The position numbers were made by a program, and so were the translations under genes. From assembly GCA_938088195.1 (NCBI GenBank), contig CALKEO010000002.1, positions 1 through 47,823 on the forward strand: a DNA stretch of 47,823 bases. The letters run 5' to 3'. Of this stretch, positions 11,314 through 45,728 are shown in pieces. The stretch's first letter is position 1, and every line of letters begins with the position of its first letter. The notes under the pieces are model-generated. The model was not told the origin of the DNA and ran no database searches. It saw nothing but the letters and a program-made list of their open reading frames with translations. The stretch comes from an uncultured Flavobacteriaceae bacterium. Lineage in GTDB: Bacteria; Bacteroidota; Bacteroidia; Flavobacteriales; Flavobacteriaceae.

Positions 11314-11329
11314 TAAAATAAATTGAAAA

Positions 11330-11337
11330 CAAATTTA
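11330..11337 (-). promoter_or_regulatory. possible -7 box for tRNA-Arg copy 2
   Basis: On the minus strand TAAATTTG matches TAnnTTTG and lies 16 bases before the first base of the mature tRNA. Copy 1 has a similar but imperfect TAAATTTA nearby. No clear -33 element was found. Confidence 0.35.
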
Positions 11338-11376
11338 AAAAATAAAGTTAATAGACAGCATTATTTAGTGTCTAAT

Positions 11377-13124: not shown

Positions 13125-13155
13125 TATAATTAGTGTAATTTATTATATTTAATAT

Positions 13156-15039: not shown

Positions 15040-15062
15040 ATTTGGCCATATTGTGATGTTTG

Positions 15063-15078
15063 TTGAACTATTTAACCA
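15063..15078. promoter_or_regulatory. 16-base element, copy 1 (candidate operator)
   Basis: TTGAACTATTTAACCA lies 66 bases before the Gfo/Idh/MocA start codon. The same 16 bases recur at 16484-16499, 63 bases before the GMC gene. The inner 13 bases form an imperfect dyad (9 of 12 paired positions). Confidence 0.45.
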
Positions 15079-15128
15079 TTTACAATAACGATTTATTTAA
15101 TTAAATTGTATTAAAATTATATCATTTT

Positions 15129-16487
15129 ATGAAAAAAAATTCTAGAAGATCATTCATTAAATACACATCTGCGTTATCCTCAGGTCTTTTGATTATACCT
15201 AGTTTGTATGGGTACTCTGCAAATAATAGATTAAATGTTGCAGTAATAGGCGTAGGAGGGAGAGGTCAAGCTAATTGGAGTAGGGTTCCACAAGAAAATA
15301 TAGTAGCTATGTGTGATGTTGATGACAACAGAGCAAAAGATGGTTACAAATTGCATCCAAAGGTTAGGAAATTCAAAGACTTTAGAGTTATGTTTGATAA
15401 GATGCATAAAGAAATTGATGCTGTTATAATAAGCACACCCGATCACACACATTTTGCAGCAACGATGGCTGCCATGGAACTTGGAAAGCATGTTTATGTT
15501 GAAAAACCTTTAGCTCATAATGTTTGGGAGCTTAGAACTTTAAAAAAAGCAGCAAAATATTATGGGATAGTTTCTCAAATGGGAAATCAAGGACATACCA
15601 CCAATGGAATAAGATTAATTAAAGAATGGTATGAAGCAGGAATTTTGGGGCAGGTTAAAGAAGTGCACGCGTGGATAGGTTCATTTAATTTTAGACCTGG
15701 ACATTATTGGACAAAGCCCGAAAGTTTTCCTCCACCCAAACATCCTATACCCGACTATTTAGATTGGGATTTGTGGTTAGGTCCTGCTAAGTTTAGAGAC
15801 TTTAATAGTGCTTATGCTCCAAAATCTTGGAGAGGGTTTTATGATTTTGGTAATGGACAGTTAGGTGATTGGTCATGTCATACTCTTGATGGTCCCTTTT
15901 GGTCCTTAGATTTAGGAATGCCAAAAAGTATCAATGTTGATGTTACCAATCCGATGACTAAACATAATTTTGTTTCTGAAAAATCTATTGTCACATATAA
16001 TTTTGAAAAAAACAAAAAAAGATCACCTGTAACGTTAAAATGGTATGAGGGTGGTTTAAAACCTGAACTTTATAAAGAAATGGGGATAGATAAAATGAAA
16101 TCTTTTGACAGACAGGGTATGGTTATGGTTGGAGATAAAAACTCTTTAATAACAGGTGGAAGACCCAATAATCCTCGTTTAGTAATGTCTGATTCTGATT
16201 GGGATGATTTTAAAAGGAATGCACCTGAAAAAACCATTCCAAGAATTAAAGACGAAACACCAGTTGAAGAATGGGTTCATGCAATTAAAAATGATACATT
16301 GCCTTTATCTAATTTTGAATATGGCGCTAGTCTCACCGAAATGGCAGTACTAGGCTGTTTGGCTCAGCGATTTAATGCCGATTTAGAGTATGATTCAAAA
16401 AATATGAAAATCACCAATAGACCAGATGTTGATCGTTTTATAAAGCCACCTGTGAGAAAAGGTTGGTCATATGGTGACAATTTTTGA
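15129..16487 (+). CDS. Tat-exported Gfo/Idh/MocA-family oxidoreductase
   Basis: The protein has 452 residues. A twin-arginine signal (R6-R7-S-F-I-K plus a hydrophobic stretch to about 28) predicts folded export with the cofactor bound. The Rossmann core begins N-V-A-V-I-G-V-G-G-R-G at 36-46, D-H-T-H occurs at 105-108, and the catalytic motif E125-K-P127 is intact. The large C-terminal domain has the G-D-W-S-C-H-T-L-D signature common in Bacteroidota exported members. Such enzymes oxidise or reduce sugars with tightly bound NAD(P), and some act on 3-keto-glycosides. It lies directly upstream of a GMC dehydrogenase and its small subunit, which fits that chemistry. The exact substrate is not shown. 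Confidence 0.88.
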   Translation: MKKNSRRSFIKYTSALSSGLLIIPSLYGYSANNRLNVAVIGVGGRGQANWSRVPQENIVAMCDVDDNRAKDGYKLHPKVRKFKDFRVMFDKMHKEIDAVIISTPDHTHFAATMAAMELGKHVYVEKPLAHNVWELRTLKKAAKYYGIVSQMGNQGHTTNGIRLIKEWYEAGILGQVKEVHAWIGSFNFRPGHYWTKPESFPPPKHPIPDYLDWDLWLGPAKFRDFNSAYAPKSWRGFYDFGNGQLGDWSCHTLDGPFWSLDLGMPKSINVDVTNPMTKHNFVSEKSIVTYNFEKNKKRSPVTLKWYEGGLKPELYKEMGIDKMKSFDRQGMVMVGDKNSLITGGRPNNPRLVMSDSDWDDFKRNAPEKTIPRIKDETPVEEWVHAIKNDTLPLSNFEYGASLTEMAVLGCLAQRFNADLEYDSKNMKITNRPDVDRFIKPPVRKGWSYGDNF

Positions 16488-26700: not shown

Positions 26701-29700
26701 ATGAGGAAATTGTTTTTTTCTTTCTTTTTATTGATAAGTGGTTTGATTTATTCTCAGTCAAACTCCTCTCCAATCGCAACCGACGTTTACACATCAACAA
26801 AAAAAAATACAGAGCTATCAGTGCATCTTGTTGGTTCTGACAGTGATATTTCAGATAATTTAACCTATTCAATTGTTTCAATTTCTACACATGGCACTTT
26901 AAAAGATCCACTTAACGGAAATGCAATATTGGTAGCAGGAAGCACCTTGTCTAGTAACGGCAATGTGGTCACATTTGTTCCAGGATCAAGTAAGTACAGC
27001 TCCTACATTGAATCAGGAACAACTTCATTTACATACAAAGTAAATGATGGCATAGATGACAGCGCAGAAAAAATAGTTTACATAAAAGTTTTTGACGATT
27101 TTTTAGCATCACCATCTTTAAAAGGTTCTGAGATAACTGGTGATAATCCTGGTGATAGTTTTGGTCAATCAATAGCCATGAGTGAGAATGGTGATTTAAT
27201 GGCAGTTGGAGCTCCTTTGTTTGGTTCAGGAGATAAGGGAAGTGTTAAAGTTTTAAAATATACTAGTGGCTCAGGTTGGGCTGCTCATGGTAATGTTATC
27301 GAAGGAGCAAGTGATGGTGATAAATTTGGATCAGGTGTTTCATTAAATGGTGACGGTTCAGTTTTGGCTGTTGGCGCAGCTTATGCAAATTCAAATAGGG
27401 GACAAGTAACAATTTACAGTTATAATTCTGGGACTAACAACTGGGATTTAATAGGAACAATTGATGGAACAAATATTGCTTCACCAAAGTCTATTTCTGA
27501 ACAATTTGGGAATGACGTGAGATTAAGTAAAGATGGTAAAACATTAGCTGTTAGTGATTTGTGGCACGATTCGGGATCTAAAATAAATTCAGGAAGAGTG
27601 GTTGTTTACAGATATCAATCAGGAACAACATGGAATATTTTAGGATCCAGTTCTGAAATTTCTGGAGAAAGTGGCGATAATTTAGGTTGGGCAGTTGATT
27701 TGAGTTCCAATGGAAATATTTTAGCAGTAGGCGCTCATGAAAACGACACAGGAAAAAATGTTGGAGGTCAAGTCAAAATTTTCCAATATAATGGCTCAAC
27801 AGATACTTGGGAAAATAAAGGGATTATTTACCCTACTGATCAAATTTCAAATGAAAGATTTGGTTCCTCAGTTGACTTAAATTCTAGTGGACTGATAGTT
27901 GCTGTAGGATCGAGATACGATAAACCAAATTCTAAGACAGCTGAAGGATCTGTTAGTGTTTATAATTGGCTGAGCGGAACCACATGGAATCGCTTAGGTT
28001 CAGAAATTAAAGATGAAGTTGGAAACGGTGACGACGCCAAATTTGATTATTTTGGTTCTCACGTATCAATAAACAATCCTGGAACCATATTAGGGGTTGT
28101 TGCTCCAGGTTTTGATGGGAATAAGGGCAATCTTAGATTATACAGCTATGATTCAGAATTATCTCGATGGACTCAAATTCCATCAACTACTTTTACCATT
28201 CCTGGTGAAAATGCTTCTGATTATACCACAGGGAGTGGAGACGAGGCAAAAGGTCAAAAAGTATTTATTAGTGGCGACGGTTCTTCTGTAGCTTTAGGAG
28301 CTGATTTGAATGACAGCGGCGGAACAGATTCGGGACATGTGAGGGTTTATAACCTTTATACAGTTCAACAAATTCCCTCTGCAGATTCTCAAACAGTTGC
28401 TTTCCCTTTATATGAGCAACTTACCTCCTCGTTAGAAATTGAACTTAAAGCTTCCGATTCAGATAGTGGTCCAAACAACTTAGGTTATGTTATTACCGAA
28501 CTTAATACTGCCAAATTATATGAGGGAAGTACAGAAATTTCATCTTCGGATATTCCTTATTCTTTAACTGGAAATAAAGTTAAATACAATAGTAATTCTG
28601 ATACAGTAGTAAATGATTCATTTAAGTTTGTTGCTCATGATGGTGATGGTGGTGCTTCCAGTGTTCCTGCAACAGTTTCACTAACCGTTATCCCTGATAA
28701 TGATAAACCTGTATCAATTGCTGATAATAAAACCACGGATGAAGATACTGTATTAGATATAACTTTAACTGCCACTGATGTAGACTCGCCAGCAAGTGAC
28801 TTAACCTATACAATAGACACTTTTCCCTTAAATGGTATCTTAAAACAAGGGGGTTATGAAGTTACTGCTAATTCAACTGCTATTTGGAATGGGCCCAATA
28901 CAACATTTACTAAATCAGGTGGGTCAGATCCAACACTACAAGCCAATCAAGACCGTCTTACTGGAGAGGTATGGATAACAAGGGGAAATGATGGTGGTCA
29001 AATATTTAATATTATGGCAGAAAGTGTTTACAATAAAACAAATAGCCCTACGGGAACAAAATGGGCGATAGGAACATTAGATCAAGTCTCGACTTTAACA
29101 TTTTCAAAATTTAGAGCAGCGGTAGGACAACCTAAAGATGTTGTTGGCAAAAATTTAGTAATGTATCTTGAAAATGATAACATCTACTTAAGTGTTAAAT
29201 TTACATCTTGGTCAACTAATAAAAATGGTGGCTTTGCCTATGAAAGAAGTACACCAGGTGCTGATTTTACCTACACACCAAATCCTAATTTTTCAGGGTC
29301 TGACTCATTTACTTTCAAAGTAACTGATAAAGGAATTAATTCAAGTACAGATACTGATGTTGAAATTAGCGATCCAGCCACAATATCAATAAATGTCAAT
29401 AATACAGATAATGACCCTCCCTTGGCTGAGAACAAATCAGTCTCTGCCAGTCAAGATACAGAAACAGCAACGATAGCTCTTGTTGCATCAGATCCTGATG
29501 ATGACGATTCATCATTAGTTTTTTCAATAGCTACCCTTCCAAGCAATGGAATTTTAAAAGATGGAGGTACTGAAATTACTGGAGCTGCAGATATCTCAGC
29601 TGCATTAACTTACTCACCAAATAATGGTTACACAGGAAGTGATTCTTTTACTTTTACAGCAAAAGATGATCAGTCAGCCACAAGTACAGCGGCCACAGTT

Positions 29701-32700
29701 TCTATTTCTGTTTCAGATTCTAATGACCCCCCTGTTGCTACAGCAAAGTCAATTACAGTAAATGAAGATGTGGAATCTGAAACCATTGTTTTAGAAGCTA
29801 CTGATCCTGATGCCTCCGACACATCATTTACCTATTCTATTGCAACTTTACCAGCAAATGGTACATTAAAAGATGGGGGAACAGTAATTACAAAAGCTGG
29901 CGATATTTCAGGCACTTTAACCTATATTTCTAATAATAATTATGTTGGAAATGATTCTTTTACATTTACAGCAAAAGATGACGAATCTGCCGAAAGTTCT
30001 GCAGCAACTGTTTCAATAACAGTTAATAATGTGAATGACCCGCCGGTTGCTCAAAATCAGTCGATTACAACAAGAGAGGACACTACTACTAGCCCTGTGA
30101 TTACTTTGTCAGCAACCGACCCTGACACATCTGACGATACTTTTACATACACCATTAAGCTGTTACCAACTAAAGGAATCTTAAAAGATGGTTCTACAGA
30201 AATTACAGCAATAGGAACTGAGTTAAGTGGAGCAACTTTGACTTACACTCCTGACTTAAACTACAATGGAAATGATTCGTTTAATTTTTCTGCCAAAGAC
30301 GATGAAAGCGCTGAAAGCGCAGATGGAAGTGTTTCATTGACTATTACACCTTGGAACGATCCACCTGTTGCCATTCAACAAAACTTGAACACTGGTGAGG
30401 ACACCTCACTAAATATAACTGTTTCAGGGACAGATGTTGATGGCGACGACTTGACTTATTTCTTGTACTCACTTCCAATAAATGGGACTTTAGAGCAAGG
30501 TGGAACTACTATAGTCGATGCTGATTTACCAAAAACTTTGACCTCCTTGGATTTGACCTATGTTCCAAATGCTGGCTATAACGGATCAGACACTTTTAAA
30601 TTTAAAGCTAGAGATTTGACTTACGAGTCATTTTCTACAGCCAATAATATGGTTGTGATAAATGATGGTGGAACACCAGTTACCTATGAAACAGAATATG
30701 GAAAAACATATTTTTTAATACAATCCACTCCAACAAAAATGGACTGGCCTGAAGCCAAAGCAATAACTGATTCTTATTACGGAGCTAGAATGTATGTTCC
30801 TTTAAATGCCGAAATGGAAAAATCTGTTTACGATGCTTTACAGTCAATGAGTAGACTAGACGGTCCTTTTTGGATGGGTCTTTTTCAAGACAGAAGTGCT
30901 ACGGATTATTCTGAGCCAAGTGGTGGTTGGTATTGGGTAAATGGAAATAAATTAGGGGATGGATATACCAATTGGCATGCTGGAGAACCCAACGACGCTG
31001 GAGATGAAGATTATGGACAATTTAATTTTGGTGGTTTTGGAATTGAATGGAATGACATGTCTGTGGGAAATGGACAATCTTATGCTATGTTTGAATTTAC
31101 TGCAGAGGACAGTACCGCCGAAATAAATATCAATATTACAGAAGTTAATGATCCACCTGTAGCAAATAATCAAAGTGTTGAAACCAATGAAGATATTCCA
31201 TTAACAATTAAACTTACAGGAAGTGACCCTGAGAATGATCCATTAACATATCTTATAAAGTCTTTACCAACTTATGGAAAATTAAAAGAGGGAGGAAATG
31301 AAATTCTAGCTTCTGAATTACCAAGATTACTTCCTGCAGATTCCTTATCCTACCATCCAAATGCTGATTATAATGGAAGTGATTCCTTTGATTTTATGAT
31401 CAATGCTAACTTTTTAAATGCCTTTTCAAAAGCAAATGGTTTAAAGTTTATTGAAAAAAATGGGGAACCTGTAACTTTTGATAAGCCTAAGGGAAAAACT
31501 TATTTTTTAATACAAAACGAAACAGGCCAAGCTGGATTTAATCCCATTGATTGGCCAGATGCTAGGGATCTTGCAAAAAATTATGAGGGGGCAGAAATGT
31601 ATATAGTTAAGGATGAAACTATGGAAAAGATGGTATGGGACGCGCTTACAGAAATGGGTTTAACAAGTGGACAGCTTTATTGGATGGGTCTTTATCAAGA
31701 CAGAACCGTTTCAGACTATATCGAACCTGGAGACGAAAGTCAAAATTTTGGTGGATGGCGATGGACCGACGGAACAAAATTACTTGGTGGCTACACCAAT
31801 TGGAAAAGTGGAGAACCTAATGAAGCTGGTCCTGAAGACTATGGCCAAATAAATTTTCATGGAACTGGGGAGTGGAACGATATGAGAATTGGTTCCGGAC
31901 AATCATGGCCACTGTTCGAATTTGCTATCACAGGAAGTTCAGAAAGTAATACAGCCAAAATATCAATTAATGTCAAATCTGTTAATGACATGCCTGTAGC
32001 CGATTCTATCAACCTAAGTACACTTGAAGAAACACCACTAGATATTACTCTTAATGCTACTGATCCAGAGGGTGTGTTACTTATGGATTATGTGGTCAAG
32101 TCTTTACCAGCAAATGGTGATCTAAGTGAAAATAATGTAACTATTACAACTGCTGATTTACCTAAAACTTTATCTGGAAAAAACTTAACCTTTGTACCAA
32201 ATGATGATTATAACGGAACAGAATCTTTTGATTACTATGTTATTGACAAAAATTGTCCTAATACCAATTCATCGACATTAACAGTTTCAGGAGATTTTAC
32301 TGCCTCGGCAAGTGGAAATAATCCTATGGTTATTCCACCACAAAATATTAAGGGAACAGCTAGTGTTAATCAAAAGCAAGTAGATATTAAATTTAGTGTG
32401 GGACAAGGTGATATATTTCAAAGTTGTCAAATTAAGTTAGATGTTAGAAGTTTTGATGATGGGTTACAATTTACAATTGATGGAGTCAATCTTTTAAGTT
32501 TTTCACAACAACATTGGGACCCTGCATTTGGCGCGAGTACTACTGAGTTTAGTGGTAATGGAAGATTTGCCACATCGGGTAGTCTTTGGGCACCATGGAA
32601 TGGCGATGGAAATCCAAAATTAGAAATTGCTTCTGGAAAGATCAAATTAATGGTTGATACTAAAAATGGAACGCGTGAAGATGTTTTACCTTTTATGGAC

Positions 32701-35652
32701 ACATCAAGAACTAATTGGGCATTAGTTTCAAACTTTACTTATGATTGCGAGGCTGGATTTAATTTATTAATTGGAAATCATAACGGAGGAGGAGGAGCCG
32801 GTGGTATCGATGCTGATTTAACAGTTGAGGCTTTCATAGTTCCATGTGAGGAAAGCAATGTAGCTAAAGTCACTATGATAGTTGATCCGGTGAATGATCC
32901 ACCTGAGTCAGATCCTCAAACTGTTGATACGGATGAAGATTTGGCTGTAGATATTACTCATGTTGGAAGAGATAAAGATTTAGTTGATATTTTTACTGTC
33001 CACACACAAATGGGTGCTGATATTCCTCAAACAGGACAAATAGGAGAGTCTTTAGCACTTTCTTCTGATGGAAATAGAATAATTCTTGGAGAATGGAATC
33101 CGGCATCTGGAAATGCTAAGGTCTTTGATTGGGATGGAACAAACTGGAAACAAGTAGGAGCAAGCATTGATGGAAGTTCAACTGGTGATATTTTTGGAGA
33201 AAACGTTACTATTTCTAGTGAGGGTAACAGGGTAGCGGTAGCAGGTCCTAAAAATGATAATGCAAGTGGTAGTGATGCGGGTCATGTAAAAGTATATGAT
33301 TACGACGGATCTAAATGGAACCAAGTTGGATCAGAAATAATTGGAAATGCAACCAACGATTACTTAGGTTATCGTGGGATGCATCTCTCAGGTGATGGTA
33401 ATGTGCTTGTCATAGCTTCTTTCAGAGGAGGTTATGTTAACACTTACCAATGGAATGGAACAGATTGGATAAAATCTGCTACTATTTCGATTAGCAAAGG
33501 AAGTACTGAATCACCTGGACAAGTATACTTATCTATTGATGGCAAAAGACTAGCCATAGGGGTTACTGCCAATGGATCAAAAGGTCAAGTGAGTATTTAT
33601 GATTGGAACGGAATCGATACTTGGAATCTTTACAAAACAATTGATGGAACAGTTGGACGTTTTGGAAATACAATCGACCTTACAAGAGATAGTAAAAAAA
33701 TAGCTATCGGCGAGCATGATTCTTCAAGTGTTAGTGTATATGATATTTCTGGACCAAATCCGGTTAGAACAGGAGTTGATATTCCCTATGGAAATCAATC
33801 TAGTTTTTGGAGATACATCTCCCTTTCAGATGATGGAAGTAGATTAGGTATTCCTATAATGGCAAGCAAATTAGGTGTATTTGATTGGGATGGATCCTCA
33901 TGGAAACAATTAGGAGAAGATATTATTTCAACAGGCTTAACTGGTGAATCGTTTGACATGTCAGCTAACGGAAAAATAATGGCAGGAGGAGGACACGATG
34001 GTCCAAACAAAATATTTAATATTTTAAACCTTTCTTATATAATTACTACCTATCCAGCCAATGGAATCTTAAAAGAAGGTTCTAAAACTATAACCCCTTC
34101 TGAACTTCCTTATATTTTAAAAGGAACGGATGCTACTTATGTGCCTAACTCAGGATTTTTTGGTCAAGACAAATACAATTTTAAGCTTAATGATGGTAAG
34201 GCAGACAGTACGGACAAAGTGAGTGGATTAAGAGAAGATTCACAAGTAACTATTAATATTAAAGAATTTGTTTTAGAACTTCCTGGTAATTATACTTTAA
34301 CACCAACTGAGACATGTAAGGGTTCAGACTTTGGAATAATTGATATTGAAGTGGCTGCAACATCTTACAAAAAAACTGCTTCTGGACCTGATATTCCGAT
34401 CACATACAAAATAAGTATTGAAGGAAAGGGAGAGTTGGCGACAATTACATCACCAGATAAAACCGCTCAAATTAAAAATTTACCAGAAGGTAAACATAAA
34501 TTAATTTTTAAAGTTGTTGAAGAACCAAAATATGAAGAAGTTATAGAGTTTGAAATTATTGGAACCGATCCACCAGTAGCTTATCCTGTTACAAAGTTAG
34601 AAGCATGTGATGATACAGCAGATGGAGATGATACAAATGGTAAGGTAGATTTTGATACATCTACTGTCTTAACTAGTCTTCTCAAAAATCCTACAACGGG
34701 CGTATTACAAGATGAAAAATTATTTGATATTGCGTTCACTTATTTTGATGAAGCTTCTGCGACAAATGTAACTGCCGCAACACTTCCTAATCCTTTTTAC
34801 TCATCGGCACAAACAATTTCTGTCAAGTTTACTAGTAAAGCCAACGGAAGTTGTATTGCTAACCAGACCATAGACTTACAAGTCAATACACTACCAGTTT
34901 TTGAAAGAATAGAAGATGTTAAAAGTGTTTGTACAAATCTTGATCCAGTTACTATTGGGGTGGCTTCCAAAGACAGTAGAAGTTATACCTATACTTGGAC
35001 AAGAAATGGAACAGATTTTCCTCCAAATATTACTGGAGTTGATAGTAGTATTACTATTGGATTAGGAGGAGAGTATGTAGTTACTGCAACTACTACTGAT
35101 GGAACAAACTGTTCTCAGTCAATGACTATTCAAATAAAGGAATCTAGTATAGCTAATTTGCAGAAAAAAGATATTGAAATTAAAGATTTGCAACCAGGGC
35201 CAAACAATACGGTTACTGTTTTAACAGGAACTCTTGGAATTGGCGATTATGAATTTGCAATTGATGATGTTACAGGTCCTTACCAAGATTCACCTATATT
35301 CGAAAATGTAAGACCAGGAAATCATATTGTATATGTTAGAGACAAAAACGATTGTGGTATTGCAAAAATTAATATTATAGTTATTGGTTATAAAAAGTTT
35401 TTTACTCCAAACGGTGATGGGTTTACTGATAAATGGAATATCATAGGAATTACCCCCGATAATTTACCTCAATCTAATATTTATATTTTTGATAGATATG
35501 AAAAGCTATTAAAGGAGTTAGATCCTCTTTCTGATGGTTGGGATGGGACTTTCTTAGGAAATCCAATGCCTCAAACGGATTATTGGTTTAAGGTTCTCTT
35601 ACAAGACGGAAGAGAATTAAAAGGACATTTCAGTTTAATAAGAGGTTGGTAA
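26701..35652 (+). CDS. giant T9SS-exported surface protein with lectin and beta-propeller domains inserted in cadherin-like repeats
   Basis: The protein has 2983 residues. The signal peptide ends L-I-Y-S-Q at 19. A cadherin-like (Big_9/tandem-95) repeat lies at about 22-130, a beta-propeller of FG-GAP-like blades at about 138-557, and then nine more cadherin-like repeats at about 558-2523. Repeat 3 holds a foreign domain at about 724-854. Repeats 7 and 8 each hold a C-type lectin (about 1335-1468 and 1599-1744, each with E-P-N and W-N-D calcium/sugar motifs). Repeat 9 holds a 200-residue domain (about 1851-2054), and repeat 10 a second beta-propeller (about 2097-2443). Ig-like domains follow, and the last 85 residues (F-F-T-P-N-G-D-G-F-T-D-K-W-N) are the gliding-motility type B sorting domain. 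It should be an outer-surface adhesin; the ligands are inferred. Confidence 0.9.
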   Translation: MRKLFFSFFLLISGLIYSQSNSSPIATDVYTSTKKNTELSVHLVGSDSDISDNLTYSIVSISTHGTLKDPLNGNAILVAGSTLSSNGNVVTFVPGSSKYSSYIESGTTSFTYKVNDGIDDSAEKIVYIKVFDDFLASPSLKGSEITGDNPGDSFGQSIAMSENGDLMAVGAPLFGSGDKGSVKVLKYTSGSGWAAHGNVIEGASDGDKFGSGVSLNGDGSVLAVGAAYANSNRGQVTIYSYNSGTNNWDLIGTIDGTNIASPKSISEQFGNDVRLSKDGKTLAVSDLWHDSGSKINSGRVVVYRYQSGTTWNILGSSSEISGESGDNLGWAVDLSSNGNILAVGAHENDTGKNVGGQVKIFQYNGSTDTWENKGIIYPTDQISNERFGSSVDLNSSGLIVAVGSRYDKPNSKTAEGSVSVYNWLSGTTWNRLGSEIKDEVGNGDDAKFDYFGSHVSINNPGTILGVVAPGFDGNKGNLRLYSYDSELSRWTQIPSTTFTIPGENASDYTTGSGDEAKGQKVFISGDGSSVALGADLNDSGGTDSGHVRVYNLYTVQQIPSADSQTVAFPLYEQLTSSLEIELKASDSDSGPNNLGYVITELNTAKLYEGSTEISSSDIPYSLTGNKVKYNSNSDTVVNDSFKFVAHDGDGGASSVPATVSLTVIPDNDKPVSIADNKTTDEDTVLDITLTATDVDSPASDLTYTIDTFPLNGILKQGGYEVTANSTAIWNGPNTTFTKSGGSDPTLQANQDRLTGEVWITRGNDGGQIFNIMAESVYNKTNSPTGTKWAIGTLDQVSTLTFSKFRAAVGQPKDVVGKNLVMYLENDNIYLSVKFTSWSTNKNGGFAYERSTPGADFTYTPNPNFSGSDSFTFKVTDKGINSSTDTDVEISDPATISINVNNTDNDPPLAENKSVSASQDTETATIALVASDPDDDDSSLVFSIATLPSNGILKDGGTEITGAADISAALTYSPNNGYTGSDSFTFTAKDDQSATSTAATVSISVSDSNDPPVATAKSITVNEDVESETIVLEATDPDASDTSFTYSIATLPANGTLKDGGTVITKAGDISGTLTYISNNNYVGNDSFTFTAKDDESAESSAATVSITVNNVNDPPVAQNQSITTREDTTTSPVITLSATDPDTSDDTFTYTIKLLPTKGILKDGSTEITAIGTELSGATLTYTPDLNYNGNDSFNFSAKDDESAESADGSVSLTITPWNDPPVAIQQNLNTGEDTSLNITVSGTDVDGDDLTYFLYSLPINGTLEQGGTTIVDADLPKTLTSLDLTYVPNAGYNGSDTFKFKARDLTYESFSTANNMVVINDGGTPVTYETEYGKTYFLIQSTPTKMDWPEAKAITDSYYGARMYVPLNAEMEKSVYDALQSMSRLDGPFWMGLFQDRSATDYSEPSGGWYWVNGNKLGDGYTNWHAGEPNDAGDEDYGQFNFGGFGIEWNDMSVGNGQSYAMFEFTAEDSTAEININITEVNDPPVANNQSVETNEDIPLTIKLTGSDPENDPLTYLIKSLPTYGKLKEGGNEILASELPRLLPADSLSYHPNADYNGSDSFDFMINANFLNAFSKANGLKFIEKNGEPVTFDKPKGKTYFLIQNETGQAGFNPIDWPDARDLAKNYEGAEMYIVKDETMEKMVWDALTEMGLTSGQLYWMGLYQDRTVSDYIEPGDESQNFGGWRWTDGTKLLGGYTNWKSGEPNEAGPEDYGQINFHGTGEWNDMRIGSGQSWPLFEFAITGSSESNTAKISINVKSVNDMPVADSINLSTLEETPLDITLNATDPEGVLLMDYVVKSLPANGDLSENNVTITTADLPKTLSGKNLTFVPNDDYNGTESFDYYVIDKNCPNTNSSTLTVSGDFTASASGNNPMVIPPQNIKGTASVNQKQVDIKFSVGQGDIFQSCQIKLDVRSFDDGLQFTIDGVNLLSFSQQHWDPAFGASTTEFSGNGRFATSGSLWAPWNGDGNPKLEIASGKIKLMVDTKNGTREDVLPFMDTSRTNWALVSNFTYDCEAGFNLLIGNHNGGGGAGGIDADLTVEAFIVPCEESNVAKVTMIVDPVNDPPESDPQTVDTDEDLAVDITHVGRDKDLVDIFTVHTQMGADIPQTGQIGESLALSSDGNRIILGEWNPASGNAKVFDWDGTNWKQVGASIDGSSTGDIFGENVTISSEGNRVAVAGPKNDNASGSDAGHVKVYDYDGSKWNQVGSEIIGNATNDYLGYRGMHLSGDGNVLVIASFRGGYVNTYQWNGTDWIKSATISISKGSTESPGQVYLSIDGKRLAIGVTANGSKGQVSIYDWNGIDTWNLYKTIDGTVGRFGNTIDLTRDSKKIAIGEHDSSSVSVYDISGPNPVRTGVDIPYGNQSSFWRYISLSDDGSRLGIPIMASKLGVFDWDGSSWKQLGEDIISTGLTGESFDMSANGKIMAGGGHDGPNKIFNILNLSYIITTYPANGILKEGSKTITPSELPYILKGTDATYVPNSGFFGQDKYNFKLNDGKADSTDKVSGLREDSQVTINIKEFVLELPGNYTLTPTETCKGSDFGIIDIEVAATSYKKTASGPDIPITYKISIEGKGELATITSPDKTAQIKNLPEGKHKLIFKVVEEPKYEEVIEFEIIGTDPPVAYPVTKLEACDDTADGDDTNGKVDFDTSTVLTSLLKNPTTGVLQDEKLFDIAFTYFDEASATNVTAATLPNPFYSSAQTISVKFTSKANGSCIANQTIDLQVNTLPVFERIEDVKSVCTNLDPVTIGVASKDSRSYTYTWTRNGTDFPPNITGVDSSITIGLGGEYVVTATTTDGTNCSQSMTIQIKESSIANLQKKDIEIKDLQPGPNNTVTVLTGTLGIGDYEFAIDDVTGPYQDSPIFENVRPGNHIVYVRDKNDCGIAKINIIVIGYKKFFTPNGDGFTDKWNIIGITPDNLPQSNIYIFDRYEKLLKELDPLSDGWDGTFLGNPMPQTDYWFKVLLQDGRELKGHFSLIRGW
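28372..34269 (+). repeat. nine cadherin-like (Big_9) repeats, five with inserted domains
   Basis: The unit pattern is V-A-x-x-Q-S ... E-D-T ... I-T-L ... D-P-D ... L-T-Y-S-I ... L-P-x-N-G-x-L-K ... L-T-Y-x-P ... Y-x-G-S-D-S-F-T-F ... A-T-V-S-I ... N-D-P-P. Starts are near 28372, 28711, 29421, 29731, 30043, 30367, 31159, 31999 and 32905. The uninterrupted units are about 103-113 codons long; the interrupted ones are about 235-455 codons. Confidence 0.85.
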
Positions 35653-37667: not shown

Positions 37668-38645
37668 ATGAAAAAGCTTTTTTTTATTTTTATACTATCA
37701 ATAAACTGCGGATTTTCTCAAGATCCAGTATTTACACAATTCTATAACATTCCTGAATCAATGAATCCTGCTTTTGCTGGTGGAGGAGGCGGCTCAGAAA
37801 TTGGAGTATTAAACAGAACACAATGGCCAGGGTTAGATTATTCTTTAAATAGTCAGTTTTTTTATTTTGATAATTATATAGAAAGATACAATAGTGGACT
37901 TGAACTGACCATTCTAAATCAAGTAGAAACAGTCACAAGGTTCAATTATACTCAAATAGGTTTAAATTATTCCTACAGAGTACAACTAAATAACGAATGG
38001 TTTTTTTATCCTGGTTTATCTGTAGGTTTTGGAAATAAAGATTATGCATTTAATAATTTAGTACTTGAAGATCAAATACTGATCAACTCAGGAATTATAA
38101 ATTTTGATTCTAAGGATCCTTTTTTACTAAATGAAAGCAAAAGTATTTTAGATATTGGAGCTGGATTTATAATTTTTAACGAAAACATTTGGTTTGGAGG
38201 AAGCTTTAAGCACTTAAACACTCCTGATATTTCTTTTGAACCTGAGGGTGATGTCAAACTAAAGCCTTTTATCTCCATTCATGGAGGATATAAATTACCT
38301 TTAAATCAAAGATTTTCTAGATCAGAAATGAATTTATATTTCAACTTTAATTACATGAACCAAAATGAGTATGATAGGTTAGATATTGGTTCCAAATTTC
38401 AAATCAATGATTTTACAATTGGTGCTTTTGGAACTTTAGCTCCAACCTCTGTTCAAAATGATTCTCATAAGTTGACATCTGTCAACTTTATAACGAACTT
38501 TGATTACAGGCAATTTAGTTTTGGATATTCTTATGATTTAAACATAAGTAGCCTTCAGAAAACTAAAGGAGTTTTTGAGATTTCAGTTTCATATAAATTT
38601 GATTCATTGTTTAACGATAACCCCATTCCATGTGGATGTAAATAA
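37668..38645 (+). CDS. PorP/SprF-family outer-membrane protein of the type IX secretion/gliding system
   Basis: The protein has 325 residues. The signal peptide ends N-C-G-F-S-Q at about 17. It continues D-P-V-F-T-Q-F-Y-N-I-P-E-S-M-N-P-A-F-A-G, the standard start of PorP/SprF proteins, and then alternating beta strands of an outer-membrane barrel with an ending G-V-F-E-I-S-V-S-Y-K-F. In Flavobacterium johnsoniae SprF is needed for delivery of the adhesin SprB. Here the gene lies 6 bases before a SprB-repeat giant, so it is probably the dedicated partner of that protein. The order (sprF-like first) is the reverse of the F. johnsoniae locus. Confidence 0.9.
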   Translation: MKKLFFIFILSINCGFSQDPVFTQFYNIPESMNPAFAGGGGGSEIGVLNRTQWPGLDYSLNSQFFYFDNYIERYNSGLELTILNQVETVTRFNYTQIGLNYSYRVQLNNEWFFYPGLSVGFGNKDYAFNNLVLEDQILINSGIINFDSKDPFLLNESKSILDIGAGFIIFNENIWFGGSFKHLNTPDISFEPEGDVKLKPFISIHGGYKLPLNQRFSRSEMNLYFNFNYMNQNEYDRLDIGSKFQINDFTIGAFGTLAPTSVQNDSHKLTSVNFITNFDYRQFSFGYSYDLNISSLQKTKGVFEISVSYKFDSLFNDNPIPCGCK

Positions 38646-38651: not shown

Positions 38652-41600
38652 TTGAAAAAAATAATTAACATATTAATATTAATTTTTTTTGTAGGATCAT
38701 TTACAAGTCTTACTGGCCAAACCTATGTTAAAACCTCTGAAAATATTTTACAGTATACTGCTGATCAGACTACAAACCATATTTTTACTATGTCAAAAAC
38801 AGGAGGTAATTACAATCCTATTATTGTCACTGTTAATTTAAATAAAGCAGAATTTACAAATACTGGTGATAATTCTAAAGTGGGTTGGGGGACTGGTAAT
38901 AATATTCCAGCCTCATGGGATTTTGAGATTACAAATGTAAATAATGGAGCTACAATTGAAGCTGGAAATAAAAGTTTTAAATTTTCTGGTGATCCAATCG
39001 TTGATGTAACTGTTAATGTAAGGGTGTTTGATTCTGGTGGAACTACTATTCCAGGTTTAGCATCTATCACATTAACTTATAGATTAGAAGGGATTTTTAC
39101 TCAGAGTGAATCTACATTTATAGCGTGTTCGGGTAATTTAAAAATTGTAGTAAATGAGGTGTCTATTGGAACTCAAAGACCGTGTGCGGGTACAGATGGA
39201 GATCCAAAATATAATATAAAAGTTTTTAATGCTGGGACAACTACATTAGTAACCGAAGTTTCACAAACAAGTAATGAATTTTTAATTCCATTAGAAATTG
39301 GTGATTATGATTATGTGATAACTGATGGTTGTGGAAGGACCTTTTCGTCTGGATACGATATAACTGATGCGCCTGAGATTGGGGCGTCAGTGATTTTTGC
39401 AGGAAAGGAATGTTCGACTGATACTGATACTAAAGCTATTTTGAAGGTTCAAGGAACTAAAAGACCGCTTTCTTGGGTATTAGAGAAAAAAAATGGAGAT
39501 AATTGGGATGCAGTATTTACTAATTTAAATGTTGGTGGTAATGCATCTAGCACCTCAGATATTACAGCATCTGGAACAGGGTCTTTTACTCTTTCTATCA
39601 ATGGTCTAACTAGTGATGGTGTTTATAAATACACCTTTACCGATGCTAATACATGTGTTAAATCTACTGAATTTAATGTAGCAACACCCTCTCCTTTATC
39701 CCATCTGCTGGTGGAATCTGAAGTAGCTACTAAACGAGATTTAAATTGTAGTGGTGATGTTGATGGGAAATTGACTTTCACTGGAAGCGGAGGTTGGACC
39801 CAACCTTTTAGTGGCAATACTATCAACCCTATTAATTGGGGATCTGGATATACTTTTACTCTTATCAATGCAGATACAGGCGCTGAGGTCGGAGTAGTTA
39901 ATTCTAGTTCGTGGTTCAATTTTGCAAAAAATGGTAGTAATGAGCAAATAGGATGGGAAGCTACATTTGATAACCTTCCACCAGGAAATTATAAATTAAA
40001 ATTAAAAGAAAGTGTCGCCACCAATACGGATGCTGATCCTGATGTAATTTTTGGATGTGAAGTATTATTTCCTGACACCTATACAATCGCTGCACCTTCA
40101 GTATTGTCAGTTACTGGAACAAAATCTGATATTAGTTGTTTTGGCGATGATGATGGTAGTATTGATTTAACTGTTAGTGGAGGAACTCCTGCATATACAA
40201 TCGCTTGGACAAAAACAGGAGATGGAACATTCAGTGCATCAACCCAAGACTTAACGGGACTGACACCTGGAGAATATAATGTAACTGTCACTGATTCTAA
40301 AAATTGTAGTCAATCAACAAGTTTTACAATTATTGAACCTGCTCAGCTTGCCGCAGAATTAGACACAACGGTTGCTACAGCAATTGATTGTTTTGACAAT
40401 AATGGAGTAATTAAAGCAGATATTACAGTTTCTTCAACAGCTCCATTTACTTATGTAATAAATGGTACTGATTATAATGGAAATAATGTGAGTGCTTCCA
40501 GTGGAGAAACAACGAATACTTCTAATAGTTTTTCCGTTAAAGCAGGAGTTTATTCTGTAACTGTAACTGATGCTCGAGGCTGTGCGGTAACTACTGCTCA
40601 GCGAACATTAACACAACCTGCTAGTGGAATGGCTGTTACTGGAACTGTTAGTGCTGATTTTAATGGTTTTGAAAATGGAGACGGATTACATATGTCGTGT
40701 AATGGAGGAAATAATGGAGAAATTGATTTAACTGTTAGTGGAGGAACGGCTGGTTACAGCTACGCATGGACAGCGGTATCAGGGTCAGGTTTAGATGCAT
40801 CTTCTGAAGATCAAACAGGCTTAACAGCTGGTGTTTATGAAGTGGTTGTAACTGATAGTACTGGATGTACAGTTTCCAGAAGATATGTTGTATCAGATCC
40901 AGCTCCTTTAACAATTCCAATAAATGACATGGCACCTGGTGATAAAGGAAATTACACTTTTTTGGGAGAGCTGGGGACAAGTAAGTATTATTTATCTAAT
41001 GCAACACTAACTTACATGGAAGCAAGAGACATTGCTGCTAATCTTGGTGGGTATTTGGTTTCAATAAAAACACAAGCAGAAAATCAATGGCTAATTGATA
41101 ATTCTCCCGAGCAAAACTTTTGGTTAGGATTGGATGATATTAGAGAAGAATCAAAAGTAGGAGGAGTAGTTGATAAAACAAAATATAGATGGAATGATGG
41201 AACGAGTTTGGATTGGGAAGGATTCCCTGGCGGTGAACCCAATGATGCCTCAAAGGATATTACTACTAATTCACCTGGGGAGGACTATATTGAATTCAGT
41301 GATGGCTCTTGGAATGATATTTTTCACAATGTAAAGAGAAAGTTTGTAATTGAATTTAATCCAACTCAGATTCCAGATTTTAATGGAAATAGTATTTCAT
41401 GTTTTGGTGGAACTAATGGATCCATTGATTTTATTGTTACAGGTGGAACCACACCCTATACTTATGCATGGACCACAGCAGATGGTTCAGGATTAGATGC
41501 TACTTCTAAAAGTCAAACAGGGCTAGGTGCTGGTACTTACTCAGTCACGGTAACTGATAGTACTGGTTGTGCCAAGTCAATTGATTACACTATTACTCAA

Positions 41601-44600
41601 CCCAATGAGTTACTAATGGCTTTTGACGATACAGTCAGTTCAGCGATTAATTGTTTTGGAGATAATGGGACTTTAAAAGTCGATATTAGTCAGGAGTCTG
41701 TGGCACCTTATACTTACTTGTTAGAGGGAACTGAGCTTGTTAGTGGTAATTTGGTTTCTCAAAGTCTTACCAATCAAACGGTTTTAACTCAATCATACAA
41801 TACTTTAAAGGCAGGTACTTATAAAGTAACTATTACCGATGCCAATGGTTGTGTTAAAGTAACACCTGAAAAGACTCTTACTCAACCTACAGATGGTCTA
41901 TCAATTTCCGAGGTTGTATCAGTTCATAATGGATTTAGTATTACATGTAACGGAGCTAATGATGGATCGATTGATTTGACAGTAGCTGGAGGAGCGGTAA
42001 ATTATACTTACGCATGGACTACAACTGATGGTTCAGGTTTAGATGCTGCAGTAGCCGATCAAACAGGGCTTGGACCTGGAACTTATAAAGTAGTTGTTAC
42101 TGATAATAACTTATGTACAATTGAAAAAACTTATACTTTAACTGAACCTACAGCATTAGCAATTACAGAGACTGTTTCAAGCCATAATGGGTTTGAAATA
42201 ACATGTAACGGAGCAAATGATGGTTCCATAGACATCACTGCCAGTGGAGGAACATCTGTTTATACTTATTCGTGGACAACCGCCGATGGTTCTGGTTTGG
42301 AGGCAGCTGTAGCTGATCAAACTGGTCTTGGACCTGGAACTTATAAAGTTGAAATTACCGATTCTAATAATTGTAAAATTGATAAAACATACACAATTAC
42401 CGAACCTGGTGCTTTAAGTTTATCGCAAAGTAGTTCCGATTTTAATGGTTTTGATGCAAGTTGTAGTGGAGGAGTGGATGCTACAATTGACTTAACCATA
42501 ACAGGTGGCGCTCCCACTTACACTTATGCATGGACTACCGCGGATGGTTCGGGTCTTGATGCGACAGCAGAAGATCAATCAGGCTTATCAGCTGGAACTT
42601 ATGACGTTACGGTAACAGACCTTAATGGATGTCAAATATCGGATAGTTTTACAATCACTGAACCTCCTCCAATTGTATTAACATCAATATTATCTGATTT
42701 TAATGGTTTTAATATTAGTTGTAATGGAGAATCTGATGGTTCTATAAATATTACTGTTTCTGGTGGGACCATATCAGGTGGAGATACCGATTACACATAT
42801 GAGTGGACAACTTTAAACGGAACGGGGCTTAATGCTTCTATTGCAGATCAAACTGGTTTATCTGCAGGAACTTATACTGTTAAAATTACTGATTCAAATA
42901 ATTGTTCTTTAACAAGATCTATAGAAATTCTTCAAGCAGATCCGATTAATATCACAGGTGTTTTATCTGATTATAATGGATATAATGTAAGTGTAAAAGG
43001 CTTATCAGATGGTTTTATAAATATTACACCTGTTGGTGGAAGTGGAGGTTATATCTACGAATGGTCAACAGCTGATGGAAGTGGATTGATTGCAGGAGAG
43101 CAAGACCAAACAGGGCTTACAATTGGAACTTACACTTTAAAATTAACTGACTCCAACGGATGTAATACAACCAAATCATTTACACTTATTGAACCGACTG
43201 AACTTATAATTGATTTAGGAACAGATCCGACTAATATTCTTTGTTTTGGAGACAAAACAGGAGTTTTAAAAGCTATTATAACGCAAGAGTCTGTTCCTAC
43301 ATATAAATACACTCTTAATGGTACTGATTATGAGGGTAATGTAATTTTAGAAACAGTTTCAAGTATCACTGCACTTAATCACACTTTTTTTGTAAAAGCA
43401 GGAATCTATTCTATAACAGTTGAGGATTTAAATGGTGGTAAGAAAACATCAGTTCAGCGTACATTCACTCAGCCAGCCGCTCCATTGGCGATTTCTGAAA
43501 CGATTTCTGATTTCAACGGTTTCAATATAAGTTGTACAGGAGCTTCAGATGCAACAATTGATTTAACAGTTACAGGTGGAACAATTACAGGAACTTTATA
43601 TAATTATACTTGGTCGACTTTAGATGGATCTGGTCTACAACCTAATATTGAAGATCAAACAGGTTTGGGACCAGGAACCTATAATGTTTTAATAGAAGAT
43701 GAAAATGCTTGTACGATAACAAAAACATACATAATTAATGAACCTGAATTAATTGATTATAAATTGGATGCTAAAAATGATATTTCTTGTTTTGGAGCCA
43801 ATGATGGGTCTATTAATATTACTGTAACTAAAGGAACAGGCGTTTATAATTATGCTTGGACTACAGATAATGGAGTTGGACTTGACCCAACTGCCGAGGA
43901 TCAATCTGGCCTATCCGCTGGAAAGTATAAATTAATTTTAACTGATGGTTGCCAAACACTTCAGTATATATATGAAATTGAAGAACCTGCTGTTTTGACA
44001 ATCGGTTTAGACGAAAAAGTAGATATTTTATGCTTTGGAGATTCTACTGGAAAAATATTAGTTACTGTTACAGGAGGAACGTCTCCATACAATTACGAGT
44101 GGATTGATAATTTTGGAAATAAATATAATAGAGATATTGGTAATGTATTTAACACAGGAAATCTTAGTAATATTCCTGTAGGTATTTATGATTTGACAGT
44201 TACTGATAAAAACGGATGTATAGAAACGTTAAAAGTTGAGCTTAAAGAACCCGAAGAATTAAAAATTGATTTTAATAAAGTTGATGTGTCGTGTTTTAAT
44301 GGAAACGATGGATCAATTGATGTTAATCCGACAGGTGGTGTAGCTCCTTACACTTACACATGGAGTGATTTTGGTAATGGAAAATTAAGAACTGATTTAG
44401 TGGCAGGAAAATATACTGTAACAGTTACTGACGATAATAATTGTGAAAAGTCTGTGGAAATAGAAATTAAATCAGCTCCTCAGTTTAATATTACATCAGT
44501 TGTTACTCCAATTACGTGTTTTGGGGCAAATGATGGTTCTATAAAATTAACAATTGATGGTGGTAAAGCTCCAATTTCACTGGAATGGGCTGATGATCCT

Positions 44601-45728
44601 CAAGCTGGAACGACGCGATCTAATTTGAAATCTGGAGTCTACTCCGTTCTTTTAAAAGATTCGAGTGGATGTGAAATTAATGAGATTTACACAATTTCTG
44701 AGCCTGCAAAATTACAATTATCAGCTATAAAATCTGATGCTTTAGATTGTGACGATCCTAATAGTGGTGCTATAGATTTACAAGTTATCGGAGGAAATCC
44801 ACCATATACTTACTCTTGGTCTAATGGGGAGACGACTGAAGATTTAACTGATGTTTCTGCAAACAATTATAGTGTAATTGTTACAGATGACAAAGGTTGT
44901 ACTGTTGAAAAAGCTTTTTCTATAGTAAGACCTTTTGAACTTAAAATTGATCTGACATCAAACCTTCGAGTTATTTGTGAAACTAGAGACGTGTACTTAG
45001 TTAATAAAGTAACAATTGAAGGGGGAGTTTTCCCATACACTGTTAAATGGTCATCTGGAGATGTATCAGGATCTAATGGTGAAATTATGGAAACCAACGT
45101 TGAGGGATCATACTCTGTTGAGGTCACTGATAACAATGGCTGTACTAAAACACAAATATTTGATGTAGTATTACCTAAACTAGGTTATCCAGAATTTGAT
45201 TACACTTCATTTTATTGGCAAACATTTGGTGCATTAACTTTTAATGACCCTATTACCTTTACTAATAATTCCACAGAAAGTTTTTTAAGTGTTTCTTGGG
45301 ATTTTGGTGATGGTAATTCATCTGATGAAAATGACCCTGTTCATTCATACGAAAAGAAAGGTTCCTATGATGTCACTCTTTATGTAACTTATTTTTCAGG
45401 GTGTATTTATGAAATAAAGAAAACTATTTATGTGGGAGATTCATACGAAATTGAATTTCCTAACGCATTCACACCTAACAGTGATGGATTAAATGATACA
45501 TTTAGGCCTGTTTATTATGGGTTTAAATCTGTTGATTTACAAGTTTTTGATACCTGGGGAACTTTAATCTACAGTGAAACAGCTGAAGGAGCAAATATTA
45601 TGACGGGGTGGAATGGTATGTTAAATGGTAAACCAGCTACAAATGGGAATTATATTTTCCAAGTTAGTGGAGAAGCTTTTAACGGAGAATCTGTTCTAAA
45701 AAACGGACCATTCACGCTACTTAGATAA
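38652..45728 (+). CDS. giant SprB-repeat adhesin with C-type lectin and T9SS type B C-terminal domain
   Basis: The protein has 2358 residues. The start is TTG at 38652, 6 bases after the PorP/SprF stop, in frame with a signal peptide ending L-T-G-Q at about 23. Residues about 24-485 are Ig-like domains. About 18 SprB repeats of roughly 75-95 residues follow to about 2175, with the core C-F-G-x-N-D-G-S-I-x-L-x-V-x-G-G ... Y-x-V-x-V-T-D-x-N-G-C ... I-T-E-P. A single C-type lectin (about 770-905, E862-P-N and W887-N-D) sits after the third repeat. A PKD domain (V-S-W-D-F-G-D-G-N) and the sorting domain (F-P-N-A-F-T-P-N-S-D-G-L-N-D) close it. By analogy with SprB it should be a mobile surface adhesin used in gliding. 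Confidence 0.92.
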   Translation: MKKIINILILIFFVGSFTSLTGQTYVKTSENILQYTADQTTNHIFTMSKTGGNYNPIIVTVNLNKAEFTNTGDNSKVGWGTGNNIPASWDFEITNVNNGATIEAGNKSFKFSGDPIVDVTVNVRVFDSGGTTIPGLASITLTYRLEGIFTQSESTFIACSGNLKIVVNEVSIGTQRPCAGTDGDPKYNIKVFNAGTTTLVTEVSQTSNEFLIPLEIGDYDYVITDGCGRTFSSGYDITDAPEIGASVIFAGKECSTDTDTKAILKVQGTKRPLSWVLEKKNGDNWDAVFTNLNVGGNASSTSDITASGTGSFTLSINGLTSDGVYKYTFTDANTCVKSTEFNVATPSPLSHLLVESEVATKRDLNCSGDVDGKLTFTGSGGWTQPFSGNTINPINWGSGYTFTLINADTGAEVGVVNSSSWFNFAKNGSNEQIGWEATFDNLPPGNYKLKLKESVATNTDADPDVIFGCEVLFPDTYTIAAPSVLSVTGTKSDISCFGDDDGSIDLTVSGGTPAYTIAWTKTGDGTFSASTQDLTGLTPGEYNVTVTDSKNCSQSTSFTIIEPAQLAAELDTTVATAIDCFDNNGVIKADITVSSTAPFTYVINGTDYNGNNVSASSGETTNTSNSFSVKAGVYSVTVTDARGCAVTTAQRTLTQPASGMAVTGTVSADFNGFENGDGLHMSCNGGNNGEIDLTVSGGTAGYSYAWTAVSGSGLDASSEDQTGLTAGVYEVVVTDSTGCTVSRRYVVSDPAPLTIPINDMAPGDKGNYTFLGELGTSKYYLSNATLTYMEARDIAANLGGYLVSIKTQAENQWLIDNSPEQNFWLGLDDIREESKVGGVVDKTKYRWNDGTSLDWEGFPGGEPNDASKDITTNSPGEDYIEFSDGSWNDIFHNVKRKFVIEFNPTQIPDFNGNSISCFGGTNGSIDFIVTGGTTPYTYAWTTADGSGLDATSKSQTGLGAGTYSVTVTDSTGCAKSIDYTITQPNELLMAFDDTVSSAINCFGDNGTLKVDISQESVAPYTYLLEGTELVSGNLVSQSLTNQTVLTQSYNTLKAGTYKVTITDANGCVKVTPEKTLTQPTDGLSISEVVSVHNGFSITCNGANDGSIDLTVAGGAVNYTYAWTTTDGSGLDAAVADQTGLGPGTYKVVVTDNNLCTIEKTYTLTEPTALAITETVSSHNGFEITCNGANDGSIDITASGGTSVYTYSWTTADGSGLEAAVADQTGLGPGTYKVEITDSNNCKIDKTYTITEPGALSLSQSSSDFNGFDASCSGGVDATIDLTITGGAPTYTYAWTTADGSGLDATAEDQSGLSAGTYDVTVTDLNGCQISDSFTITEPPPIVLTSILSDFNGFNISCNGESDGSINITVSGGTISGGDTDYTYEWTTLNGTGLNASIADQTGLSAGTYTVKITDSNNCSLTRSIEILQADPINITGVLSDYNGYNVSVKGLSDGFINITPVGGSGGYIYEWSTADGSGLIAGEQDQTGLTIGTYTLKLTDSNGCNTTKSFTLIEPTELIIDLGTDPTNILCFGDKTGVLKAIITQESVPTYKYTLNGTDYEGNVILETVSSITALNHTFFVKAGIYSITVEDLNGGKKTSVQRTFTQPAAPLAISETISDFNGFNISCTGASDATIDLTVTGGTITGTLYNYTWSTLDGSGLQPNIEDQTGLGPGTYNVLIEDENACTITKTYIINEPELIDYKLDAKNDISCFGANDGSINITVTKGTGVYNYAWTTDNGVGLDPTAEDQSGLSAGKYKLILTDGCQTLQYIYEIEEPAVLTIGLDEKVDILCFGDSTGKILVTVTGGTSPYNYEWIDNFGNKYNRDIGNVFNTGNLSNIPVGIYDLTVTDKNGCIETLKVELKEPEELKIDFNKVDVSCFNGNDGSIDVNPTGGVAPYTYTWSDFGNGKLRTDLVAGKYTVTVTDDNNCEKSVEIEIKSAPQFNITSVVTPITCFGANDGSIKLTIDGGKAPISLEWADDPQAGTTRSNLKSGVYSVLLKDSSGCEINEIYTISEPAKLQLSAIKSDALDCDDPNSGAIDLQVIGGNPPYTYSWSNGETTEDLTDVSANNYSVIVTDDKGCTVEKAFSIVRPFELKIDLTSNLRVICETRDVYLVNKVTIEGGVFPYTVKWSSGDVSGSNGEIMETNVEGSYSVEVTDNNGCTKTQIFDVVLPKLGYPEFDYTSFYWQTFGALTFNDPITFTNNSTESFLSVSWDFGDGNSSDENDPVHSYEKKGSYDVTLYVTYFSGCIYEIKKTIYVGDSYEIEFPNAFTPNSDGLNDTFRPVYYGFKSVDLQVFDTWGTLIYSETAEGANIMTGWNGMLNGKPATNGNYIFQVSGEAFNGESVLKNGPFTLLR
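40108..45178 (+). repeat. array of about 18 SprB repeats, interrupted once by a C-type lectin
   Basis: Fifteen or so repeats are of the common type with G-G-x-x-x-Y-T-Y-x-W. Three (40345-40620, 41605-41890 and about 43198-43476) are of a second type with N-G-x-L-K-x-D-I and a longer middle loop, ending in T-Q-P instead of E-P. The lectin lies at about 40960-41370. Nucleotide identity between units is only moderate. Confidence 0.85.

What the first reader, a model, noticed from the sequence alone, without database searches (positions are those of the whole stretch)
28711..34269. Cadherin-like repeats used as sockets for whole guest domains
In the 2983-residue protein, five of nine consecutive cadherin-like (Big_9) repeats are split by a complete foreign domain, and the repeat sequence resumes afterwards exactly where it left off. 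Three guests lie in the same loop, between the Y-x-G-S-D-S-F-x-F strand and the final A-x-I-S-I-x-V strand: C-type lectin 1, C-type lectin 2 and the 200-residue Cys-containing domain. One lies after L-K-x-G-G-x-E-V-T, and the second beta-propeller lies after the D-x-D block, before L-S-Y-I-I. The intact repeats 4-6 show what the uninterrupted form looks like. This would be a rigid stalk displaying different binding heads at fixed positions, a modular design I do not know as a described system. The alignment was done by eye.
Basis: partly seen in the sequence, partly recalled or inferred. Interest (0 to 1): 0.8.

Follow-up and report, generated by a model that had tools for sequence, protein, structure and literature searches.

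The report
Adhesin with domains plugged into repeats
A flavobacterium's giant, probably cell-surface protein carries five separate domains, two of them lectin-like, each plugged into a loop of one repeat of its stalk, and close relatives carry some of these repeats empty or with a different domain plugged in.

Summary
In the 2983-aa protein (26701-35652 +), repeats R2, R6, R7, R8 and R9 of nine consecutive Big_9/cadherin-like repeats are interrupted by complete domains. With the guest removed, all five hosts pass Pfam's Big_9 cut-off. In a splice control, 0/1540, 1/1815, 0/1783, 11/1799 and 0/1323 background pieces did as well as the true second part. The best evidence is natural: relatives in the genus carry the R2, R8 or R9 repeat uninterrupted, or R2 with another guest; in one genome two neighbouring genes differ by presence or absence of guests, with flanks 81-99% identical. 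Guest A and the Cys guest also exist as small separate proteins. The lectin-like guests keep an EPN/WND motif and the C-terminus is a type IX secretion signal, so a multi-headed surface adhesin is the likely function (inferred). The design is not undescribed: RTX adhesins project ligand-binding domains from 'split' Ig-like domains. Secretion route, loops and changing socket occupancy differ here. Verdict: real; a new variant of a known kind.

The parts
26701..35652 (+). Giant T9SS-type adhesin gene (2983 aa)
26767..27099 (+). R0, intact N-terminal Big_9 repeat (aa 23-133)
27100..28371 (+). Propeller 1, FG-GAP_2 (aa 134-557), in series, not nested
28372..28704 (+). R1, intact repeat (aa 558-668)
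28705..28872 (+). R2 host, first part (aa 669-724; borders good to a few residues here and below)
28873..29253 (+). Guest A (aa 725-851), D-E loop; family that mostly begins IWxG and ends YERS; small separate proteins elsewhere
29254..29415 (+). R2 host, second part (aa 852-905)
29416..30357 (+). R3, R4, R5, intact repeats (aa 906-1219)
30358..30621 (+). R6 host, first part (aa 1220-1307)
30622..31104 (+). Guest CTLD1 (aa 1308-1468), F-G loop
31105..31152 (+). R6 host, last strand (aa 1469-1484)
31153..31422 (+). R7 host, first part (aa 1485-1574)
31423..31932 (+). Guest CTLD2 (aa 1575-1744), F-G loop, with EPN/WND motif
31933..31989 (+). R7 host, last strand (aa 1745-1763)
31990..32247 (+). 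R8 host, first part (aa 1764-1849)
32248..32850 (+). Cys guest (aa 1850-2050), F-G loop, begins KNC and ends PCE; no Pfam model above cut-off
32851..32898 (+). R8 host, last strand (aa 2051-2066)
32899..32994 (+). R9 host, strands A-B (aa 2067-2098)
32995..34023 (+). Propeller 2 guest (aa 2099-2441), B-C loop
34024..34272 (+). R9 host, rest (aa 2442-2524)
35389..35610 (+). CHU_C type IX secretion signal (aa 2897-2970)

Best explanation
The protein is a type IX-secreted, cell-surface adhesin whose stalk of Big_9/cadherin-like Ig domains carries five extra domains as true domain insertions. Each host Ig domain closes around its guest, so the guest's two ends leave one loop side by side and the guest projects sideways while the stalk continues. 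The guests sit in the F-G loop (CTLD1, CTLD2, Cys domain), the B-C loop (propeller 2) and the D-E loop (guest A). In a seven-strand Ig fold these three loops share one pole (recalled topology, not measured), so all heads would emerge at the N-terminal end of their repeat. The two lectin-like heads probably bind sugars with calcium through their EPN/WND site; the other heads probably bind other surface ligands. Over evolution a socket can be empty, filled, or filled with another guest, and socket-plus-guest units also exist as separate small secreted proteins. Shown: nesting by sequence, guests as independent domains, occupancy differing between relatives, secretion signal. Inferred: surface display, ligand binding, stalk stiffness.
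For: Nesting: profile halves in order, splice control, Big_9 cut-off passed by 5 of 5 guest-removed hosts. Occupancy in the genus: R2 empty in G011, guest A in G000 and G012, guest B in G007, G013, G016, G017. R3 intact in five genes but holding an LVIVD propeller in G007 (208.5 bits); against G017 the DNA is 81.7% identical in the R3 first part and 89.2% in its second part + R4. In G016, gene 1 has empty R8 and R9 and the neighbouring gene 2 has both filled: R8 first part 93.7% identical, R8 last strand + R9 first part 80.7%, from the R9 right junction on 99.4% over 1632 bp. Guest A in small separate proteins; the Cys guest alone, and socket+CTLD and socket+propeller units. CTLD in a second host type, Ig_7, recognised after removing the guest in 3 of 5 tested. 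AlphaFold strand order: six before and one after the guest in R6, R7, R8, two before and five after in R9, against seven in intact R5, leaving aside one 3-residue strand each in R7 and R9. E, P, N, E, W, N, D invariant in 10 of 10 CTLD rows; the profile finds CEL-I, mannose receptor and DC-SIGN. CHU_C 35.3 bits, cut-off 27.
Against: No coordinates were available, so closure of each host was not seen directly; pTM is 0.62 and 0.42, so domain packing is uncertain, and part of the Cys guest is poorly predicted (pLDDT about 36-38). The R6, R7 and R8 last strands are short and weak or absent in the profile scan, and for R6 and R8 1 of 1815 and 11 of 1799 background windows did as well. R9 passes Pfam's cut-off by only 0.3 bits. 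The uninterrupted R8 of G007, G008, G017 and of the G011 C1 gene could be a replaced repeat rather than an emptied one. CTLD1 is 0.9 bits under Pfam's Lectin_C cut-off. Two of five hosts of the second type gave no family after guest removal. No binding data. The genomes are draft assemblies, and several copies (G011, G016 gene 2) are broken by stops or frame breaks.
Confidence: 0.82

Rival explanations
1. The guests are ordinary domains in series; the 'second halves' are stray strands or remnants of other repeats.
For: In R6, R7 and R8 the second part is one strand plus linker, weak or absent in the profile scan; R6 and R8 had 1 and 11 background windows as good. Propeller 1 in the same protein really is in series.
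Against: Guest-removed hosts pass Big_9; relatives have the same repeat uninterrupted at the same place, with flanking DNA 81-99% identical in one genome.
Confidence: 0.04
2. The guests are not binding heads but spacers, protease-resistant shields, enzymes or parts needed for assembly; the protein may act in gliding, matrix or cell-cell cohesion.
For: Propeller 2, the Cys guest and guest A have no known ligand; PDB sequence searches gave nothing convincing for guest A and nothing for the Cys guest.
Against: The CTLDs keep the calcium-sugar motif in 10 of 10 rows, and in RTX adhesins ligand-binding domains are recognised by this architecture (PMC12077191, passages).
Confidence: 0.2
3. The mosaic arises from assembly chimerism of metagenome bins.
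For: The genus members whose record titles are known are nearly all labelled MAG, and some copies carry frame breaks.
Against: The same junctions recur in separate assemblies: G012 is 96% identical through R2 into guest A, and G003 and G011 repeat R7-R9 at 61-63% identity, in G011 on a 497 kb contig.
Confidence: 0.02

Closest known systems
Split (Ig-like) domains of RTX adhesins (AhLap, FrhA; MpIBP)
   Same: A ligand-binding domain with adjacent ends buds out of an Ig-like domain that is discontinuous in sequence, within a long Ig-type stalk (PMC12077191, PMC10865825, passages seen).
   Different: Those are type I secreted with an RTX C-terminus. The FrhA sugar-binding domain and the AhLap RTX domain leave after the first host strand; here the F-G, B-C and D-E loops are used, with five sockets in one stalk, a type IX signal, C-type lectin-like domains and a propeller as guests, and socket occupancy that differs between close relatives.
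GhpA of Aureispira (grappling hook protein)
   Same: Its fragments are among the Foldseek matches of the R5-R7 model; a giant Bacteroidota surface protein (recalled).
   Different: TM-scores are 0.19 or less; no nested guests were examined and its paper was not read.
SprB-type gliding adhesins
   Same: Large T9SS proteins of Flavobacteriaceae (recalled); a SprB-repeat protein with its own CTLD lies downstream in the window.
   Different: No SprB repeat was reported in the gene described here.
Animal-type C-type lectins (CEL-I, mannose receptor, DC-SIGN)
   Same: CTLD profile match at E 3.9e-9 to 3.4e-7; EPN and WND motifs.
   Different: The bacterial domains are nested in Ig hosts, and the rows show no cysteine (by eye).

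Membership tests
RTX-adhesin split-domain system | Ig-like domain discontinuous in sequence, closed around a second domain | tested here: met
   by sequence; model strand order agrees; no coordinates
RTX-adhesin split-domain system | Projected domain is an independent fold | tested here: met
   separate guest A and Cys guest proteins; CTLD in another host; propeller recognised by Foldseek
RTX-adhesin split-domain system | Projected domain binds a ligand | not testable with these tools
   motif only, for the CTLDs
RTX-adhesin split-domain system | Type I secretion with C-terminal RTX beta-roll | tested here: not met
   C-terminus is CHU_C, type IX; no RTX family among the seven reported
Pfam Big_9 (PF17963) | Guest-removed hosts reach the curated cut-off of 23.6 bits | tested here: met
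   48.6, 52.4, 54.5, 34.0, 23.9 bits
Pfam Lectin_C (PF00059) | Guest reaches the cut-off of 22.6 bits | tested here: inconclusive
   CTLD2 22.9 (over), CTLD1 21.7 (under)
T9SS substrate with CHU_C signal (PF13585) | C-terminal CHU_C domain over cut-off 27 | tested here: met
   35.3 bits, aa 2897-2970

The most novel reading that the evidence does not exclude
The repeats are conserved acceptance sites of a head-shuffling system: giant adhesin genes and a bank of small head + lipoprotein units share near-identical tails, so recombination moves, empties and refills sockets, letting a flavobacterium change which surfaces it sticks to.
Probability: 0.25. Interest if true: 0.75.

Novelty: new variant of a known kind. 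Interest (0 to 1): 0.55.

Why it matters
It extends the split-domain principle from type I secreted RTX adhesins to a type IX secreted Bacteroidota adhesin. It also offers natural filled, empty and other-guest versions of one socket, with both states side by side in one genome, which makes the question of how whole domains get into and out of an Ig fold testable. The rule is practical too: removing a guest can reveal host domains that profile searches miss (Ig_7 in L064: no family in the interrupted stretch; full-length match after removal).

Tried and rejected
Pfam and PDB sequence searches gave no identity for guest A or the Cys guest, only weak hits below cut-off; the one Foldseek search of the model that holds the Cys guest is dominated by propeller matches. 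Guest B (80 aa of it) had no match in the phage collection. I considered reading the shared tails (G016 99.4% over 1632 bp, L061 98.3% over 1090 bp, L073 97.6% over 1154 bp) as proof of targeted recombination at socket borders, and rejected that as proof: gene conversion must stop where homology stops, so breakpoints at guest borders are partly expected. Of seven unit pairs compared, L061 and L073 had such long near-identical tails, L078 was 100% over only 81 bp at a contig end, and the other four were 70-82%. The CTLD downstream in the SprB-repeat protein lies at or near a repeat boundary (by eye) and is not counted as nested. Paper searches for a T9SS or Bacteroidota description of nested or split adhesin domains listed none that I recognised by title and start of abstract; most subscription papers are not held, so this is weak evidence of absence.

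Full report
1. What is there. The window is one whole contig (47823 bases) of a 1.53 Mb, about 80% complete draft genome. Record titles of close relatives read Flavobacteriaceae, Flavobacteriales, Cryomorphaceae or Bacteroidetes, nearly all labelled MAG; that they are marine is my inference from isolate names. The gene at 26701-35652 encodes 2983 aa: signal-like N-terminus (by eye), Big_9 repeat R0, FG-GAP propeller 1, nine repeats R1-R9, tail, CHU_C type IX signal.

2. The split repeats. A profile from 19 intact repeats, none of them split, finds both parts of R2, R6, R7 and R9 in order and the first part of R8; the second parts of R7 (2.9 bits) and R6 (-0.1 bits) are weak on their own and the R8 last strand is not found. 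The splice control gives 0 of 1540 (R2), 1 of 1815 (R6), 0 of 1783 (R7), 11 of 1799 (R8) and 0 of 1323 (R9) background windows at or above the true second part. With the guests left out, 5 of 5 hosts exceed the Big_9 cut-off.

3. The guests are independent domains. Guest A: 8 of 296 genomes of the order, this one included, have a match. Apart from the window itself nine copies were read: small lipoprotein-like or secreted proteins and parts of larger proteins; 8 of 9 begin IWxG and 9 of 9 end YERS. The Cys guest was found in 1 of 296 genomes of the order, the window's own, but in separate open frames of 319-332 aa (one cut at 257 aa by a contig end) in other members of the genus. CTLD matches limited to the guest (aa 1575 to about 1748, or 1307 to about 1468) lie in another type of giant protein, where by eye the CTLD splits a different Ig-like host. 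In L064 no Pfam family is found in the interrupted stretch, but Ig_7 appears full-length after the guest is left out; this holds for 3 of 5 such hosts tested and 2 of 5 gave no family. By eye, 17 of the 39 loci scanned show Ig_7-like nesting and 6 more a similar one without Pfam support; the other 16 are the window and its own kind (5) or unclear, in series, weak or without a match (11).

4. Sockets differ between relatives. Of 22 genus genomes 11 match at E <= 1e-30, most of them incomplete. R2, 7 genes covering it: guest A in 2 (G000; G012, whose contig ends inside the guest), empty in 1 (G011), another guest of about 90 aa (guest B) in 4. R3, 6 genes: intact in 5, with an LVIVD propeller at the B-C site in 1 (G007). 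R7, 9 genes: CTLD in 9. R8, 9 genes: Cys guest in 4, none in 5, one of which (G016 gene 1) keeps the two flanking cysteines as a seeming scar. R9, 9 genes: propeller in 8 (three of them in broken frames), empty in 1 (G016 gene 1). Some 'empty' R8 repeats may be replaced repeats. G016 is the cleanest case because both states are neighbours: R8 first part 93.7% identical DNA, R8 last strand + R9 first part 80.7%, and after the propeller 99.4% over 1632 bp.

5. Separate head units. In 8 of 9 contigs listed, and in this genome (L039), a small secreted protein with one socket plus CTLD, or one socket plus propeller, or the Cys guest alone, lies next to or near a 241-255 aa lipoprotein-like gene; the ninth contig (L078) ends there. 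Within L061 and L073 a CTLD unit and a propeller unit share 98.3% and 97.6% identical tails, which begin at (L073) or a few residues after (L061) the right edge of the CTLD.

6. Structure. AlphaFold models of aa 1760-2524 (mean pLDDT 79.7, pTM 0.62) and aa 1108-1762 (81.9, 0.42) give seven strands in intact R5, six before and one after the guest in R6, R7 and R8, and two before and five after the propeller in R9, leaving aside one 3-residue strand each in R7 and R9. Foldseek finds propellers over about 350 columns and, for the second model, cadherin and Ig arrays at low TM-score. Strand letters A-G are my assignment. That the B-C, D-E and F-G loops share one pole is recalled from Ig and FN3 folds.

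7. Function. The presumed lectin calcium ligands are invariant in 10 of 10 rows (that these are the calcium ligands and that EPN is mannose-type is recalled). A surface-exposed, multi-headed adhesin is the best reading; ligands are unknown.

8. Known or new. Published split domains in RTX adhesins use the same principle (passages). Graham 2024 (Proteins 92:933), cited there, is not held and was not read. Type IX route, loops, number of sockets, guest kinds and differing occupancy are the differences. I file it as a new variant of a known kind, not as an RTX adhesin.

Noticed in passing
window 38652-45728: SprB-repeat protein of 2358 aa with a Lectin_C domain at aa 786-899 at or near a SprB repeat boundary, preceded by PorP/SprF (37668-38645).
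   Followed up: partly
window 45739-47823: Another Big_9 array protein, cut by the contig end.
   Followed up: no
L039, L055, L056, L058, L059, L060, L061, L073, L076: Small secreted head proteins with a shared C-terminal domain, next to or near a 241-255 aa lipoprotein-like gene; function unknown.
   Followed up: partly
L057 (G016), about 11012-15664: Second giant adhesin gene directly after the first, broken into four frames; decay or sequencing error not resolved.
   Followed up: partly
G000:C6, C61; G016:C3, C1; others: The guest A family has several copies in this genus, many in short open frames.
   Followed up: partly
window 9108-11141 and 6891-8882: GH20-like and M49 peptidase-like genes upstream of the adhesin.
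   Followed up: no
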